NCBI GenBank assembly: GCA_037200445.1 | Contig: JBBCGH010000001.1 | Span: 4,030,001-4,094,000 of the forward strand | DNA from: Alphaproteobacteria bacterium | GTDB lineage: Bacteria; Pseudomonadota; Alphaproteobacteria; Rhizobiales; Xanthobacteraceae | DNA length: 64,000 nt | Direction of reading: 5' to 3' | Part shown: positions 46,336-52,541 of the stretch, piece after piece | Layout: each line of letters opens with the position of its first letter | Numbering within the stretch: the first letter of the stretch is position 1 | The notes under the pieces: model-generated | Databases searched by the model: none | What the model was told of the DNA's origin: nothing | The model's input: the letters and a program-made list of their open reading frames with translations, nothing else | Program-made: the position numbers and the translations under genes

Positions 46336-47949
46336 ATGACGACACGCAGAAGCATGCTGAAGGGCGGCCTTGCGGCCGCCGCGCTGACCAGCGCGCCTTC
46401 CATCATCAGTTCCAAGGCGCAGCCTTCGGCTGCCCGCACCGTCAAGGCCGTGATGCACGCCGACCTGCGCGTGCTCGATCCGATCTGGACCACCGCGAAC
46501 ATCACCGCCTACCACGGCGCAATGGTCTACGACACGCTGTTCGGGCTCGATGGCGACTTCAAGCCGCAGCCGCAGATGGTGAGCAAGTGGGGCCTCTCCG
46601 ACGACAAGCTCACCTACACGTTCGAGCTGCGCGACGGACTGAAATTCCACGATGGCGCGCCGGTGACGCCCGCGGACTGCGTCGCGTCGGTGCGCCGCTG
46701 GGCGGCGCGCGCCGCGGCCGGCCAATCGATGATGCAGCGCGTGAAGGACACGCCCGTCGTCGACGACAAGACGTTCCGCATCGTGCTGAACGAGCCGTAT
46801 GGCCTCGTGATCGACAGCCTGTCCACGATATCGACGTCGCTCTGCTACATGATGCGCAGACGAGACGCCGAGATCGACCCGAACCAGCAGGTCCGCGACA
46901 CGATCGGCTCCGGCCCGTTCCTCTACAATCGCGACGAGACGCGGCCCGGCAATCGCCACGTCTACGATCGCAATCCGAATTACGTGCCGCGCCCTGAGCC
47001 CGCCTCGGCGATGGCCGGCGGCAAGATCGTGAAGCTCGACCGCGTCACCTTCGAGAACATCGCCGACGAACAGACGGCGCTCTCCGCGCTTCAGGCGGGC
47101 GAGATCGATTTCTACGAGGTGCCGCCGCAGGACCTGATCGATGATCTGAAGAAGGACAGGAACCTCACCGTCGAGGTGCTCAACAAGACCGGCCACATCG
47201 CCTTCATGCGGCTCAACAGCCTGCATCCGCCGTTCAACAACCCGGATGCCCGCAAAGCGATGCTCTACCTCGCCAAGCAGGACGACGTGATGCGCGCGAT
47301 CTTCGGCCAGACCTCGAAGGCGTGGCAGGCCTGCGGCTCATACTTTGCCTGCGGCACGCCGATGACCAACGACGAGAATACCGAGTGGTTCAAACACGGC
47401 CAGGATATCGCGAAGGCGAAGCAGCTGTTCGCCAAGGCCGGCTATGACGGCAGGCCGGTGGTCGTGCTGCAGGCGACCGATCATTACCTCGCCAACCCGG
47501 CCGGACTGTTCGCCGCACAATGGCTGCGCCAGGCCGGTGTGAACGTGGATCTGGCCGCGATGGACTGGGGCGCACTGGTGACGCGCCGCGCTTCAAAGAA
47601 GCCGCCGGCCGAAGGCGGCTGGAACATCTTCTCCACCACCGTGACCGGCATCACCTTCGCCGATCCGATCTCATTCACCGGCCAGGCGGCGAATGGCGAG
47701 AAGGCCTGGTTCGGCTGGCCGACCAATGAGCTGCAGGAGCAGCTTCGCAACAAGTGGGCGACCGCACCGACGCTGGAGGCCCGCCAGGCGATCGCGAAGG
47801 ATCTACAGAAGAACGGCTGGGACTACGTACCGCACGTGATCCTCGGCCAGTTCTACCGCAACTCGGCCTGGCGCAAGAACATCACCGGCGTGATCGGGAT
47901 GCCCGAGGTGGTGGGATTCTGGAACATGGAAAAAGGCGTTTCCGGTTGA
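46336..47949 (+). CDS. Family-5 (DppA/DdpA-type) ABC substrate-binding protein, copy 2
   Basis: 537-aa paralogue of the protein at 41959. It has a twin-arginine-type signal (MTTRRSMLKGGLAAAALTS) and the start VLDPIWTTANITAYHGAMVY, with FELRDGLKFHDGAPVTPADC in the same place. It is the binding protein nearest to the permease genes and probably serves them. The start ATG 46336 follows GGAGG. Confidence 0.93.
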   Translation: MTTRRSMLKGGLAAAALTSAPSIISSKAQPSAARTVKAVMHADLRVLDPIWTTANITAYHGAMVYDTLFGLDGDFKPQPQMVSKWGLSDDKLTYTFELRDGLKFHDGAPVTPADCVASVRRWAARAAAGQSMMQRVKDTPVVDDKTFRIVLNEPYGLVIDSLSTISTSLCYMMRRRDAEIDPNQQVRDTIGSGPFLYNRDETRPGNRHVYDRNPNYVPRPEPASAMAGGKIVKLDRVTFENIADEQTALSALQAGEIDFYEVPPQDLIDDLKKDRNLTVEVLNKTGHIAFMRLNSLHPPFNNPDARKAMLYLAKQDDVMRAIFGQTSKAWQACGSYFACGTPMTNDENTEWFKHGQDIAKAKQLFAKAGYDGRPVVVLQATDHYLANPAGLFAAQWLRQAGVNVDLAAMDWGALVTRRASKKPPAEGGWNIFSTTVTGITFADPISFTGQAANGEKAWFGWPTNELQEQLRNKWATAPTLEARQAIAKDLQKNGWDYVPHVILGQFYRNSAWRKNITGVIGMPEVVGFWNMEKGVSG

Positions 47950-47980
47950 CGCGACGCCTGTGCGGCATACTCAGCTGTGT

Positions 47981-48465
47981 TCCCCTCCCCCTTGCAGGGA
48001 GGGGTTAGGGGTGGGGGTCAGGAGGTAGCGCTCAGTGGGGAATGGCGTGACCATCACGTGGCGGGATGATCCGACGCGGACACCGACAGCCAACAAGCGC
48101 AGTCAAGCGCGTGGGCTGCGACGCCGCGCGACCGAGCCCGAGCAAAAACTGTGGTGGCATTTGCGTCATCGCTTGCCCGTCGAGGACTCGCATTTTCGTC
48201 GCCAAGTCCCGATCGGTCCTTACGTCGCTGACTTCTGCTGCTTGAAAGCGAAATTGATCGTCGAAGTCGATGGCAATCAGCATGGTCTCGACGACCATCT
48301 GCCAAGGGACGCAAAGCGAACCGTCTATCTCACCTCGCAAGGATTCTCTGTTCTTCGTTTCTCGAATCGCGAAGTGATGACCGAAATAAACGGAGTTCTC
48401 GAGGCGATCTACGCTCACCTAGCCTCGACCCCCGCCCCCCACCCCTCCCCTCAAGGGGGAGGGGA
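47981..48465. mobile_element. DUF559 gene bracketed by inverted palindromic repeats
   Basis: A 39-bp sequence (47981-48019, starting TCCCCTCCCCCTTG) and the reverse complement of 48427-48465 agree at 34 of 39 positions and face inward around the DUF559 gene. Each is itself palindromic. The unit splits the transporter operon between the binding protein and the first permease. The sequence left of the first arm (GCATACTC) also precedes the gene-less repeat pair at 52387. I infer a mobile unit from this; no target duplication was recognised. Confidence 0.55.
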
Positions 48466-48481
48466 GCCCGCCGGAGCGTGA
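48035..48481 (+). CDS. DUF559 domain protein, Vsr-like nuclease fold
   Basis: 148-aa protein of the DUF559 family, related to very-short-patch-repair endonucleases. RRATEPEQKLWWHLR, FRRQVPIGPYVADFCC and the acidic core LIVEVDGNQHG (a PD-(D/E)xK-like D...ExDG pattern) are visible. The last residues (PAPHPSPQGGGEPAGA) are the translation of the right-hand repeat. Start GTG 48035; nearby GTG codons are possible. The gene is foreign to the transporter operon. Function of the family is unproven. Confidence 0.82.
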   Translation: MGNGVTITWRDDPTRTPTANKRSQARGLRRRATEPEQKLWWHLRHRLPVEDSHFRRQVPIGPYVADFCCLKAKLIVEVDGNQHGLDDHLPRDAKRTVYLTSQGFSVLRFSNREVMTEINGVLEAIYAHLASTPAPHPSPQGGGEPAGA

Positions 48482-48487
48482 CGCTAT

Positions 48488-49429
48488 ATGCTAGCCTACA
48501 TCATCCGGCGGCTTGCCTCGACGGTGCTCGTGATGGGCATCGTCGCGGTGTTCGTGTTCCTGCTCCTGCATCTCTCGCCCGGGGACCCCGCGGCGATCAT
48601 CGCCGGCGACAATGCGACGAACGAACAGATCGCGGGCATTCGCAAGCAGCTCGGCCTCGACGATGCGTTGCCCGTCCAGTTCTATCGCTGGCTGGTGGCG
48701 GTGCTGCACGGGGACCTCGGCATCTCGATCTTCTCCAACGAACCCGTCGCCAAGCTGATCAGCCAGCGCATAGAGCCGACGCTGTCGCTGGCGCTAACCA
48801 CCATCACGGTCGCGGTGACGCTCGCGGTCTCGTTCGGCGTGCTCGCCGCCTGGAAGGTCGGGAGCTGGATCGACCGCTCGCTGATGGTCGTGTCCGTGCT
48901 CGGCTTCTCGGTGCCGGTATTCGTGGTCGGCTACATGCTGATCTACGTGTTCTCGATCAATCTGCGCTGGCTGCCGGTGCAAGGCTATTCGCCGATCGAC
49001 CAGGGCTTCGGCCCCTGGATGGAGCGGCTGATCCTGCCCTCGATCGCGCTCGGGCTTGCCTACGTGGCGCTGATCGCGCGCATTACCCGCACCTCGATGC
49101 TCGAAGTGCTGGCCGAGGACTACATCCGCACCGCCAACGCCAAGGGCGTTGCGACCCGGTCAGTGCTGCTCAAGCATGCGCTGAAAAACGCGGGCGTGCC
49201 GATCGTCACCGTGATCGGCATCGGCGTCGCGCTGCTGATCGGCGGCGTCGTCATCACCGAGACCGTGTTCAACATCCCGGGCGTCGGCCGGCTCGTGGTC
49301 GATGCGATCTCCAAGCGCGATTACCCGATCATCCAGGGCGTGATCCTGATCTTCTCCGGCGTCTATGTGCTGGTGAATCTGCTGGTCGACCTGTCCTACA
49401 CGCTGCTCGATCCGAGGATACGCTATTGA
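48488..49429 (+). CDS. Dipeptide/oligopeptide-type ABC transporter permease (DppB-like)
   Basis: 313-aa inner-membrane permease. The N-terminal MLAYIIRRLASTVLVMGIVA anchor and the post-anchor LSPGDPAAIIAG are typical of DppB. The cytoplasmic EAA loop is EDYIRTANAKGVATRSVLLK near residue 215 and the end is LLDPRIRY. It overlaps the next permease by 4 nt. It works with the binding protein at 46336, from which the DUF559 unit now separates it. Confidence 0.93.
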   Translation: MLAYIIRRLASTVLVMGIVAVFVFLLLHLSPGDPAAIIAGDNATNEQIAGIRKQLGLDDALPVQFYRWLVAVLHGDLGISIFSNEPVAKLISQRIEPTLSLALTTITVAVTLAVSFGVLAAWKVGSWIDRSLMVVSVLGFSVPVFVVGYMLIYVFSINLRWLPVQGYSPIDQGFGPWMERLILPSIALGLAYVALIARITRTSMLEVLAEDYIRTANAKGVATRSVLLKHALKNAGVPIVTVIGIGVALLIGGVVITETVFNIPGVGRLVVDAISKRDYPIIQGVILIFSGVYVLVNLLVDLSYTLLDPRIRY

Positions 49430-50304: not shown

Positions 50305-51419
50305 ATAACGAAAATCCTCATGGTGAGGAGCCGCCGAAGGCGGCGTCTCGAACCATGGCCCCAGACGCCGCGCGGCCGTCCTTCGAGACGCGCCCTGCGG
50401 GCGCTCCTCAGGACGAGGGCCGAGCGCTCCTCACCATCCGCGATCTCAAGACTCACTTCTTCACCGTCGACGGCGTGACGCGCGCGGTCGACGGCGTGTC
50501 ATTCGATGTCTTTCCCGGCGAGACGCTCGGCATCGTCGGCGAATCCGGTTGCGGCAAGAGCGTCACGGCACTTTCGATCATGCGGCTGCTGCCGCCGCGG
50601 CTGGCGCGCACCGTGAACGGCAGCGTCACATTTGAGAACCGCGATCTCGTGCAGCTCGACGAGCCCGAAATGCGCAAGCTGCGCGGCAACCGGCTGGCGA
50701 TGATTTTCCAGGAGCCGATGACCAGCCTCAATCCGGTGCTCACCGTCTGTCACCAGATCGCCGAGTCGGTGCGCATCCACACCGGCGCGAGCGCGAGTGC
50801 CGCAAACGCGCGCGCCGTCGAGATGCTGCGGCTGGTCAAGATTCCGGACGCGGAGCGGCGGCTCACCGACTACCCGCACCAGTTCTCCGGCGGGATGCGC
50901 CAGCGCGTGATGATCGCGACCGCGCTGGCCTGCAATCCGACGCTGCTGATCGCCGACGAGCCGACCACCGCGCTCGACGTGACCATTCAGGCGCAAATCC
51001 TCGACCTGATGCTGGAACTCAAAGCCCGCACCGGCGCCGCAGTGATCCTGATCACGCACAATCTCGGCATCGTGGCCGAGACGTGCGCGCGCGTGATCGT
51101 GATGTATGCGGGCCGCAAGATCGAGGAGGCCGCGACGACGGAGCTGTTCGACCGCCCCGCGCATCCCTATACGCGCGGGCTGATGGCCTCGATCCCGCGC
51201 CTGCGCGCGAAGAACCGCAAGCGGCGCCTCGCCGAAATCCCCGGCATCGTGCCCTCGCTGCGGGAGCCGATCGAGGGTTGCGCTTTCGCACCGCGCTGCG
51301 CCTATGCGGTCGCGCGTTGCCGCGCCGAGGCGCCGGAATTGCGGCCAATCGGCACCGGGCATGTCGTTGCCTGTCACGAGGCCGAGCGCGTGCTAGCCGC
51401 CGACCGGGCCGCCGCATGA
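50301..51419 (+). CDS. Dipeptide-type ABC transporter ATPase (DppD-like) with repeat-derived N terminus
   Basis: 372-aa ATPase. Walker [14 protein letters not shown], signature [15 protein letters not shown], Walker [15 protein letters not shown], and the C-terminal [14 protein letters not shown] oligopeptide-transporter domain are intact. The GTG start at 50301 overlaps the DppC stop. Residues 5-40 ([13 protein letters not shown] ... GAPQDEG) are encoded by an intergenic-type palindromic repeat, so the protein carries about 40 extra residues before the normal start [11 protein letters not shown]. Confidence 0.93.
50316..50417. repeat. CTCATGGTGAGGAG...CGTCTCGAACCATG repeat inside the DppD-like gene
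   Basis: CCTCATGGTGAGGAGCCGCC, CGTCTCGAACCATGG, then CCTTCGAGACGCGCC and CTCCTCAGGACGAGG: two inverted halves of an element I know as a common intergenic repeat in Bradyrhizobium-like genomes. It is in frame and contains no stop. Confidence 0.75.
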
Positions 51420-52381
51420 GCCCGGTGGTCGAAGTCGAGAACCTGAAGAAGCATTTTCCGCTGCAGAGAGGCCTGCTCGCGCGCTCAATTGCAATGGTGA
51501 AGGCGGTCGATGGTGTCAGCTTTGCGATTGCGCCTGGCGAGACGCTGTGCCTCGTCGGTGAATCCGGCTGCGGCAAATCCACCGTCGGAAAGCTCTTGCT
51601 GCGCCTGCTCGAGCCGACCGAAGGCACGATCCGGCTCGACGGCGAGGACATCACGCATCTGACGCCAGGCGATATGCGCCCGCATCGCAAGCGCATGCAG
51701 ATGGTGTTCCAGGACCCGTATGCCTCGCTCAACCCGCGCATGGCCGCCGGCCGGATCGTGAGCGAGCCTTTGGAGAATTACTCGGACATCTCAACGAACG
51801 AGCGCGAGGCGCGCACCGCCGAGCTGTTCGAGAAAGTGGGCCTGCGCACCGACGCGATGAAACGCTTCCCGTTCGAGTTCTCCGGCGGGCAGCGCCAGCG
51901 CCTCGGCATTGCGCGCGCGCTTGCGCTCAATCCGGCGGTGATCATCGCCGATGAGCCGGTCTCCGCCCTCGACGTCTCGGTGCAGGCGCAGGTCTTGAAC
52001 CTGATGATGGACCTGCAGGAGGAACTCGGCCTCGCCTACCTGTTCGTCTCGCACGATCTCGGCGTGGTCGAGCATATCGGCCATCGCGTCGCCGTGATGT
52101 ACCTCGGCCGCATCGTCGAGATCGCCGACAAGGAGCCGCTGTTCGAGACGCCGCTGCATCCCTACACACAGGCGCTGATGGCTGCGGCGCCGATCGCGGA
52201 CCCGCACGTGAAGCGCGAACGCATCGTGCTGCAGGGCGACGTCCCCTCGCCGATCAATCCGCCCTCAGGCTGCGCGTTTCATACGCGGTGCCCGTTCGTG
52301 TTCGAGCGGTGCAAGGTGGAGACGCCGGCGCTGAAACCCGCCGCCGATGGGCGGCGGGTGGCGTGTCATCTGGTGGAGTGA
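51416..52381 (+). CDS. Dipeptide-type ABC transporter ATPase (DppF-like)
   Basis: 321-aa second ATPase. [16 protein letters not shown], Walker [18 protein letters not shown], signature [19 protein letters not shown], Walker [17 protein letters not shown] and the C-terminal [14 protein letters not shown] block are all present. It overlaps the DppD-like gene by 4 nt and closes the transporter operon. A repeat pair follows. Confidence 0.95.
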
Positions 52382-52386
52382 GCGTG

Positions 52387-52520
52387 CCGCATACTCGGTC
52401 TGTTACCCTCCCCCTTGCGGGGAGGGTCGACCGCCAGAGGCGGTCGGGGTGGGGTCGAGAGAGTGGGCGCCGATCTCGCGACCCCCACCCCCAACCCCTC
52501 CCCGCAAGGGGGAGGGGAGC
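52387..52520. repeat. Inverted pair of CCCTCCCCCTTGCGGGGAGGG palindromes without a gene
   Basis: Left half at 52405-52456 and right half at 52480-52520 carry the same palindromes as the DUF559 unit arms, facing each other across about 25 nt with an extra GACCGCC...GGCGGTC hairpin. The flank GCATACTC is shared with 47967. It looks like a gene-less version of the DUF559 unit. It fills the gap between convergent genes. Confidence 0.8.
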
Positions 52521-52541
52521 GCACGTGCGCTTGCGGCTGGA

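What the first reader, a model, noticed from the sequence alone, without database searches (positions are those of the whole stretch)
47981..48465. DUF559 nuclease gene inside a REPIN-like inverted-repeat unit splitting a transporter operon
Seen: a 39-bp palindromic sequence left of the DUF559 gene and its reverse complement on the right agree at 34 of 39 positions. The gene's own C terminus is the translated right arm. The unit sits between a binding-protein gene and its permeases. A gene-less pair of the same palindromes lies 4.4 kb away (52387-52520) and shares the outer flank GCATACTC. Known: REPINs are paired inverted REPs mobilised by RAYT transposases encoded between such repeats. Inference: here a Vsr-like DUF559 nuclease could take the RAYT role, with solo doublets as non-autonomous copies. 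That would be a different class of REP mobiliser.
Basis: partly seen in the sequence, partly recalled or inferred. Interest (0 to 1): 0.78.

Follow-up and report, generated by a model that had tools for sequence, protein, structure and literature searches.

The report
Nuclease gene carried by palindromic repeats
A small gene for a Vsr-like DNA-cutting enzyme sits between two mirrored palindromic repeats and looks like a tiny mobile element; most of the relatives of the gene that were sampled have the same layout, which makes this enzyme a candidate for what spreads a class of short bacterial repeats.

Summary
The gene encodes DUF559. The layout is general: 137 of 187 testable DUF559 loci score as flanked by an inverted pair, against 0 of 30 PIN controls; of 22 Y1-transposase loci 12 have inverted repeats but none has this arm type. 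Repeat number tracks the gene: at least 3 arms in 53 of 55 genomes with DUF559 against 15 of 95 without, and 42 of 46 against 14 of 141 in a second sample. One congeneric genome has a clean empty site here, another lacks a second DUF559 unit, and the solo doublet at 52378-52537 is absent from a relative. The gene is under purifying selection (dN/dS 0.04-0.15, 13 pairs). The predicted fold resembles homing endonuclease I-Bth0305I and, more weakly, Vsr. That the nuclease itself moves the repeats is inferred, not shown. Ten searches of open PMC papers found none linking the two.

The parts
47950..48487 (+). whole inserted unit (538 bp) between the binding-protein stop codon and the permease ATG
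   Evidence: In congeneric G002 the two genes overlap (ATCTGATGCTC) and nothing of the unit is present
47962..48019 (+). left arm: outer GCGGCATACTC, palindrome CCCCTCCCCCTTGCAGGGAGGGG, inner edge GGGGTGGGGGTC
   Evidence: the repeat finder I2; 34 of 39 match to the right arm
48035..48481 (+). DUF559 (PF04480) nuclease-family gene, GTG start, 148 aa
   Evidence: Pfam 1.4e-36; residues invariant in 30 flanked relatives; predicted fold like 3hrl, 3r3p, 1cw0
48427..48484 (-). right arm, inverted copy of the left arm; its inner part is translated as the C terminus of the protein
52378..52537 (.). solo (gene-less) doublet of the same kind of arms, 160 bp, bracketed in this genome by the 4-bp repeat TGGA
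   Evidence: absent from G002 at the orthologous site; 52401-52520 folds as one long hairpin, z -9.84

Best explanation
The unit is an autonomous member of a widespread family of REPIN-like mobile elements: two inverted palindromic arms (typically CCCTCTCCC- or CCTCCCC-loop-GGGGAGGG-like, an optional second hairpin, then an inner GGGTGAGGGG- or GGGTGGGGG-like edge) around a single gene for a Vsr-fold DUF559 protein, about 500 bp in all. SHOWN: the cis association across many taxa; an arm type not seen at the Y1 and hardly at the PIN control loci; arms abundant where the gene is present and, in most genomes looked at, resembling the arms of the resident gene; empty sites in relatives; closely similar units at unrelated sites in one genome; purifying selection and invariant acidic/His residues. 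INFERRED: the protein is an active nuclease that recognises the arms, cuts DNA at them, and so moves or copies both its own unit and the gene-less doublets, which would be non-autonomous derivatives. In role it would be the counterpart of RAYT, with unrelated chemistry. At the sites read here, insertion falls just after a stop codon.
For: Own genome: 6 of 7 DUF559 hits are flanked. Survey: 80 of 107 testable loci (108 collected, one with too short a flank) and 57 of 80 in the second sample, by my reading of the record titles 36 of 51 alpha, 5 of 7 unclear, 16 of 22 non-alpha; PIN 0 of 30. Arm type: 0 of 22 Y1 loci, although 12 of 22 have inverted repeats of other sequence (30 fetched, 8 cut short and not tested). 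Orientation: of 94 loci with both inner arms typed, 78 point inward, 6 outward, 10 the same way. Trans association; PIN presence is a weaker predictor (logit 1.39 against 4.74). Solo arms resemble the flanks of the same genome's DUF559 genes: 34 of 47 typed arms from five genomes beat 90% of random foreign sets. Arm similarity rises with protein similarity (Spearman 0.15 in 135 loci below 65% identity, 0 of 300 permutations as high). Mobility: L070 and L088 in one genome, 93% identical proteins, no flank homology found. Empty sites. dN/dS 0.04-0.15. Nearest solved structures: a DUF559 protein and a homing endonuclease, then Vsr.
Against: No call shows cleavage, excision or transposition. 50 of 187 testable loci are not flanked by the score used; those in the tree are scattered, 35 changes. 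A few of the 137 pass the score with repeats that do not look like this arm type (L220; L237 at exactly 32; L238 in part). Arms without the gene: at least 10 arms in 8 of 95 genomes and 9 of 141 lacking DUF559 by the cut-off used; the gene with fewer than 3 arms: 2 of 55 and 4 of 46. PIN presence is itself associated with arms (57 of 97 against 11 of 53). In the own genome only 4 of 12 typed solo arms match resident flanks clearly better than foreign ones. The arm-protein correlation is modest and not corrected for genome relatedness. The arm pattern was derived from DUF559 loci of the order sample. Most non-alpha loci come from metagenome bins, whose labels can be wrong. Target-site duplication is unproven: one 4-bp repeat at one doublet. 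One unit is shared at one site by several genera, so movement may be rare. Several dS values exceed 1.
Confidence: 0.62

Rival explanations
1. Homing. The nuclease cuts pre-existing solo doublets or arms, and the gene is copied into them by double-strand-break repair, so the gene spreads among repeats that something else creates.
For: Apart from a structural-genomics DUF559 protein (3hrl), the best match by sequence and by fold is the catalytic domain of homing endonuclease I-Bth0305I (3r3p). G001 carries a single arm-like unit at the very junction where the window has the gene. Gene-bearing and gene-less doublets share one layout.
Against: At the finding's site G002 has no doublet at all, and at the L002 site in G001 the two convergent stop codons abut, so the empty site need not hold a doublet. 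Homing alone does not explain why arms are so much more numerous where DUF559 is present.
Confidence: 0.18
2. Passenger. The arms are moved by an unrelated enzyme, and DUF559 is cargo that happens to be carried between two arms.
For: Some genomes have many arms and no DUF559 hit at 1e-15 (G188 106, G124 82, G065 42 arms; G124 and G188 have weaker DUF559 hits). The mobiliser of alphaproteobacterial CGTC repeats is likewise unknown (PMC3733652, sections 6 and 16 read).
Against: Layout and arm type recur with the same gene in distant taxa; purifying selection; the only Y1 hit of the own genome has its own different arms, and 0 of 22 order-wide Y1 loci have these arms.
Confidence: 0.1
3. Host function. 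DUF559 is a Vsr-like repair nuclease (as proposed for VsrA of Caulobacter), and the arms are terminators or folded DNA that it processes, without mobility.
For: PMC12907096 (passages seen): the DUF559 protein VsrA is needed for the SOS response of methyltransferase mutants and is predicted to be a mismatch-repair endonuclease. One unit is kept at the same site over several genera.
Against: Empty sites within the genus, closely similar units at unrelated sites, and several different gene-arm pairs in one genome fit a mobile element better than a fixed repair gene.
Confidence: 0.08

Closest known systems
RAYT / REPtron and REPIN (REP-associated tyrosine transposases; PMC2817692 abstract, PMC3116915 passages)
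   Same: A gene flanked by two inverted repeats; gene-less inverted doublets elsewhere; repeat abundance follows the gene; gene and repeats co-vary (here modestly).
   Different: The protein is of the Vsr-fold DUF559 family, not an HUH Y1 transposase; the arms are CTCCC/GGGTGAGGGG type, without the GTAG or CGTC tags; up to eight DUF559 hits per genome, whereas the PMC3116915 passages describe each RAYT as single-copy.
Vsr-like homing endonuclease I-Bth0305I (PDB 3r3p) and Vsr (1cw0, 1vsr)
   Same: Predicted fold; conserved acidic and His residues.
   Different: No intron or intein; a stand-alone domain inside palindromic arms with gene-less derivatives.
DUF559 proteins 3hrl (Neisseria) and VsrA of Caulobacter (PMC12907096)
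   Same: Same family.
   Different: The passages seen say nothing of flanking palindromes ('palindrom' 0 times); VsrA is treated there as a putative mismatch-repair enzyme.
MITE with parent insertion sequence
   Same: An autonomous unit plus short non-autonomous copies with the same ends.
   Different: No DDE or Y1 transposase in the unit; a regular target-site duplication is not established.
E. coli ycjD and a Box C-like repeat (the name Box C is recalled, not tested by sequence)
   Same: The E. coli DUF559 gene ycjD lies beside copies of a repeat with the same arm consensus.
   Different: ycjD is not between an inverted pair within 400 bp (score 19).

Membership tests
RAYT / REPtron | gene between two REPs in inverted orientation | tested here: met
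RAYT / REPtron | HUH Y1 tyrosine transposase | tested here: not met
   PF04480, and PF18741 below its cut-off; predicted fold like 3hrl and I-Bth0305I
RAYT / REPtron | abundance of cognate repeats follows presence of the gene | tested here: met
   cognate resemblance, weak in the own genome
RAYT / REPtron | GTAG-tagged REP | tested here: not met
   read in the sequence; a GTAG-type arm flanks the Y1 gene L079 instead
REPIN | two inverted repeats with a short spacer as the replicating unit | tested here: met
   facing pairs in the listed part of the own-genome matches; 52387-52520, absent from G002; replication itself not testable here
Vsr-like (EDxHD) homing endonuclease | fold and conserved active-site-type residues | tested here: met
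   (conservation and predicted fold, not activity)
Vsr-like (EDxHD) homing endonuclease | resides in an intron or intein | tested here: not met
   intergenic unit between two intact ORFs
Vsr-like (EDxHD) homing endonuclease | copies its gene into the cognate empty allele by double-strand-break repair | not testable with these tools
   needs an experiment
Insertion sequence / MITE | target-site duplication | tested here: inconclusive
   TGGA at one solo doublet; none defined at the DUF559 units
CGTC repeats of alphaproteobacteria | CGTC tag, 8-9 bp stem, CCA-type tail | tested here: not met
   definition read in PMC3733652; compared by eye with the arms

The most novel reading that the evidence does not exclude
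A lone Vsr-fold nuclease is the mobiliser of a new, taxonomically wide class of self-moving palindromic elements, mechanistically unrelated to RAYT/REPINs, DDE insertion sequences and known homing systems. It would account for many of the CTCCC/GGGTGAGGGG-type repeats of Alphaproteobacteria and relatives, perhaps including the Box C-like repeat beside ycjD in E. coli.
Probability: 0.5. Interest if true: 0.93.

Novelty: new variant of a known kind. Interest (0 to 1): 0.85.

Why it matters
REP-like palindromes are common bacterial repeats, and outside the GTAG families their mobiliser is not established: PMC3733652 states that CGTC repeats are not associated with transposase genes. This finding gives a concrete candidate enzyme for another abundant repeat class, turns a domain of unknown function into a testable mobile-DNA enzyme, and suggests that REP/REPIN-type systems arose independently around a different nuclease fold.

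Tried and rejected
E. coli as a source of clean empty sites: 3361 of 5426 genomes hold at least 80% of the ycjD stretch, but the two fetched alleles without an annotated ycjD carry transporter genes there instead, so no clean empty site. S. meliloti pSymB (L250) has very strong arms (score 208); its strain-level empty sites were not pursued. Of the other four plasmid-collection loci tested there, L254 scored 41 and L251, L252 and L253 scored 18.5, 19 and 28; these five are outside the 187. Concerted evolution of the two arms at one long-kept site was examined and is not supported: within-locus left-right score (median 64) is not above between-species left-left (70) or right-right (134.5) (200-bp flanks, which include some non-arm sequence). 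Target-site duplication from the L070/L088 pair: the boundary is not clear enough. A first cognate-arm test used only aligned arms in one orientation and gave 20 of 47 fewer good matches in effect: none of 9 for G088 and none of 6 for G162 were under 0.1. It was redone with both strands, 300-bp flanks and all DUF559 loci, a change made after seeing the first result. In some searches truncated loci were first placed wrongly; L056 and L077 were corrected and L075, which raised the count from 79 to 80. The Y1 locus L079 slipped into the sets and is left out of all counts here; the arm-protein correlation was 0.17 with it and is 0.15 without it and without two duplicates. Three DUF559 counts per genome were typed one off; the corrected Spearman is 0.78 as before. 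Codon comparison of L115/L119 failed because of a stop codon.

Dropped or duplicate rows: L182 and L244 are the same loci as L009 and L070; L013/L018 and L015/L019 are by position two pieces of one broken gene each; all are in the 187. The tree used 175 rows, without duplicates, stops and short pieces. The score limit of 32 was set after seeing the first loci. In one search, 14 genomes with only hits weaker than 1e-15 count as lacking DUF559; three genomes already in the order sample were left out.

Papers: PMC3733652 sections 6 and 16 and passages; PMC12907096, PMC3116915, PMC2267715, PMC11879112 and PMC6006769 passages; PMC2817692 abstract and outline; PMC10969869 term search without a hit; PMC3239194 not held. 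Ten literature searches listed no paper that by title or abstract start links DUF559/COG2852 to REP-like repeats; most listed papers were not opened, and only open PMC papers were searched.

Full report
WHAT IS THERE. The window is G000:C1:4030001-4094000 of an unnamed 5.84-Mb genome. Between a family-5 solute-binding-protein gene (stop at 47949) and a permease gene (ATG at 48488) lies a 538-bp unit: left arm, a 148-codon GTG-start gene, right arm. The arms agree at 34 of 39 positions in inverted orientation. The gene is PF04480 DUF559, and its C terminus is the translated right arm. This is a common trait: in 78 of 137 flanked loci the stop codon lies beyond the inner edge of the right arm. 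The unit, outer arm edge to outer arm edge, has a median of 500 bp in those 137. A gene-less doublet of the same kind lies at 52378-52537.

THE SAME GENOME. Seven PF04480 hits exist. Six lie between inverted palindromic arms, of several arm families, the two arms of one locus resembling each other (scores 76, 44, 53.5, 75, 74, 70; the seventh, a weaker hit in a 433-codon frame, 24). By reading of the neighbouring coding sequence (names recognised from memory, no call) three others sit at pheS|pheT, sucC|sucD and glyQ|glyS junctions. The single weak Y1-transposase hit has its own, quite different arms beginning GTAGGGTGGGCAAAGG, a RAYT/GTAG-like arrangement, which serves as an internal contrast. 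A pattern for the arm (palindrome plus inner edge) has 121 matches in the genome against 25 for the reversed control, some arms being matched twice; in the listed part many are facing pairs a few tens of bases apart.

GENERALITY IN CIS. I scored the best local alignment of the left 400 bp with the reverse complement of the right 400 bp. Of 108 DUF559 loci from the own genome, its genus and its order, 107 were testable and 80 scored 32 or more (one search gives 79; L075 was repositioned). Thirty PIN-domain loci from the same order gave none, highest 28.5. A second sample of 80 loci from titled genome records gave 57; by the titles, 36 of 51 alphaproteobacterial, 5 of 7 unclear and 16 of 22 others, among them Chloroflexi, beta- and gammaproteobacteria, Geobacteraceae and Gastranaerophilales. 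Most of the non-alpha records are metagenome bins, whose labels can be wrong; two Acidovorax isolates (L241, L245) are not bins. L220 has an inverted repeat of quite other sequence, L238 one that is only partly arm-like, and L237 passes at exactly 32 without looking like an arm; they are in the counts. A Deinococcus plasmid locus, outside these samples, scored 41 and splits a row of hpa-type catabolic genes. A regex for the arm type finds it on at least one side of 162 of 188 DUF559 loci and on both sides of 97, on one side of 1 of 30 PIN loci, and in 0 of 22 Y1 loci, although 12 of those 22 have inverted repeats of other sequence (8 of 30 fetched Y1 loci were cut short and not tested, and L273, L290 and L299 look like copies of one element). 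So the method detects other inverted-repeat layouts, and this arm type goes with DUF559. Inner arms face inward in 78 loci, outward in 6 and the same way in 10, of 94 with both typed; in 43 of 137 at least one side could not be typed. Loci without a flanking pair are scattered over the protein tree (47 of 175 rows, 35 changes), apart from the three long-frame proteins L007, L016 and L017, which group together.

TRANS ASSOCIATION. In 150 genomes of the order, at least 3 arms occur in 53 of 55 with DUF559 (E at most 1e-15) and in 15 of 95 without; Spearman 0.78; within taxonomic families 13 contrasts go up, 2 down, 1 tie. With the pattern fixed, 187 further genomes of the class gave 42 of 46 against 14 of 141. 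After removing two arms per gene, 49 of 55 and 40 of 46 genomes still have at least 3. PIN presence is also associated with arms (57 of 97 against 11 of 53), but less strongly, and DUF559 predicts arms within either PIN class. Solo arms typed for five genomes resemble the flanks of the resident DUF559 genes: 34 of 47 do better than 90% of random equal-size sets of foreign loci (10 of 10, 5 of 9, 9 of 10, 6 of 6), but only 4 of 12 in the own genome (arms within a genome are not independent, and the test was changed after a first version).

MOBILITY. At the finding's site G002 (same genus; permease 96% identical in protein) has the two genes overlapping; G001 has one palindromic unit of about 60 bp of another arm family; G037 has about 70 bp of unrelated sequence. 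At the L002 site the two convergent stop codons abut in G001, and G002 carries a different palindromic repeat. The window's solo doublet is absent from G002, and here the insertion is bracketed by TGGA; this could be a target-site duplication but is one case. Two units in genome G130 share 93% of the protein and nearly identical arms at places without detectable flank homology; similar pairs occur between bins labelled betaproteobacterial. Other units are old: that of L001 (pheS|pheT by my reading) is shared, with both or one flank homologous, by loci of several genera.

THE PROTEIN. Thirty flanked proteins keep invariant D46, E57, D59, H63, D72 and R75 (numbering of the fragment). dN/dS is 0.04-0.15 in 13 pairs, several with dS above 1. 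A profile finds 3hrl (1.5e-36) and the mobile-intron protein 3r3p (4e-4). The predicted structure (mean pLDDT 82) matches 3hrl, 3r3p (homing endonuclease I-Bth0305I) and, more weakly, Vsr. A Caulobacter DUF559 protein, VsrA, is needed for an SOS response in cells lacking a methyltransferase (PMC12907096, passages).

READING. RAYTs were recognised by three facts: the gene always between two inverted REPs, co-evolution, and abundance of cognate REPs where the gene is present (PMC2817692 abstract). The DUF559 units show the same three kinds of evidence, the first in about three quarters of loci and the second only modestly (Spearman 0.15, 0 of 300 permutations). The simplest reading is a REPIN-like system built on a Vsr-fold nuclease. 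Cutting and movement remain inferred. Clean empty sites favour insertion of the unit over homing into an existing doublet, but do not exclude homing.

A POSSIBLE LABORATORY HANDLE. The E. coli DUF559 gene ycjD lies between sapF and fabI, beside copies of a repeat with the same consensus (CCCTCGCCCC-TCT-GGGGAGAGGGTTAGGGTGAGGGG at a site between ypfG and tkt), of which a median of 6 places per genome is detected in 5100 of 5426 genomes. I recall this as Box C, which PMC2267715 lists for E. coli as 56 bp and 32 copies; I did not see its sequence there, so the identity is not tested.

LIMITS. Literature was searched only in open PMC papers. The arm-protein correlation is not corrected for species relatedness. 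The control families differ from DUF559 in their genomic setting. The genome collections hold one genome per species, so very recent insertions were out of reach.

Noticed in passing
50316-50418: Another palindromic unit (CCTCATGGTGAGGAGC... type) lies between the second permease and the first ATPase gene, is absent from G002 at that site, and appears to be translated as an N-terminal extension of the ATPase ORF.
   Followed up: partly
L079 (G000:C1:259604-259891): The only Y1-transposase hit of the genome lies between GTAGGGTGGGCAAAGG-type inverted arms, a RAYT-like layout, so two unrelated REP-type systems seem to coexist in one genome.
   Followed up: partly
L255, L256, L257, L258 (E. coli): 3361 of 5426 E. 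coli genomes hold most of the ycjD (DUF559) stretch; two others fetched lack an annotated ycjD there. ycjD lies beside copies of a repeat that resembles the DUF559 arms and may be Box C.
   Followed up: partly
L220: In a bin labelled Bipolaricaulota the DUF559 gene is enclosed by a much longer inverted repeat (about 158 bp, score 167.5) of different sequence.
   Followed up: no
L065, L072, L074, L102, L113, L130, L131: On each side of the gene the matching flank is a doublet-like pair of palindromes rather than a single arm, so the gene seems to lie between two doublets.
   Followed up: no
L001, L067, L175, L178, L207, L208, L210, L246, L010: A DUF559 unit is shared at one junction (pheS-pheT by my reading) over several genera, i.e. 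kept for a long time at one place.
   Followed up: partly
L264:2915-3010 (G002 at the L002 site): A different palindromic repeat occupies the same junction that holds a DUF559 unit in the window's genome: such junctions seem to be reused by unrelated repeats.
   Followed up: no
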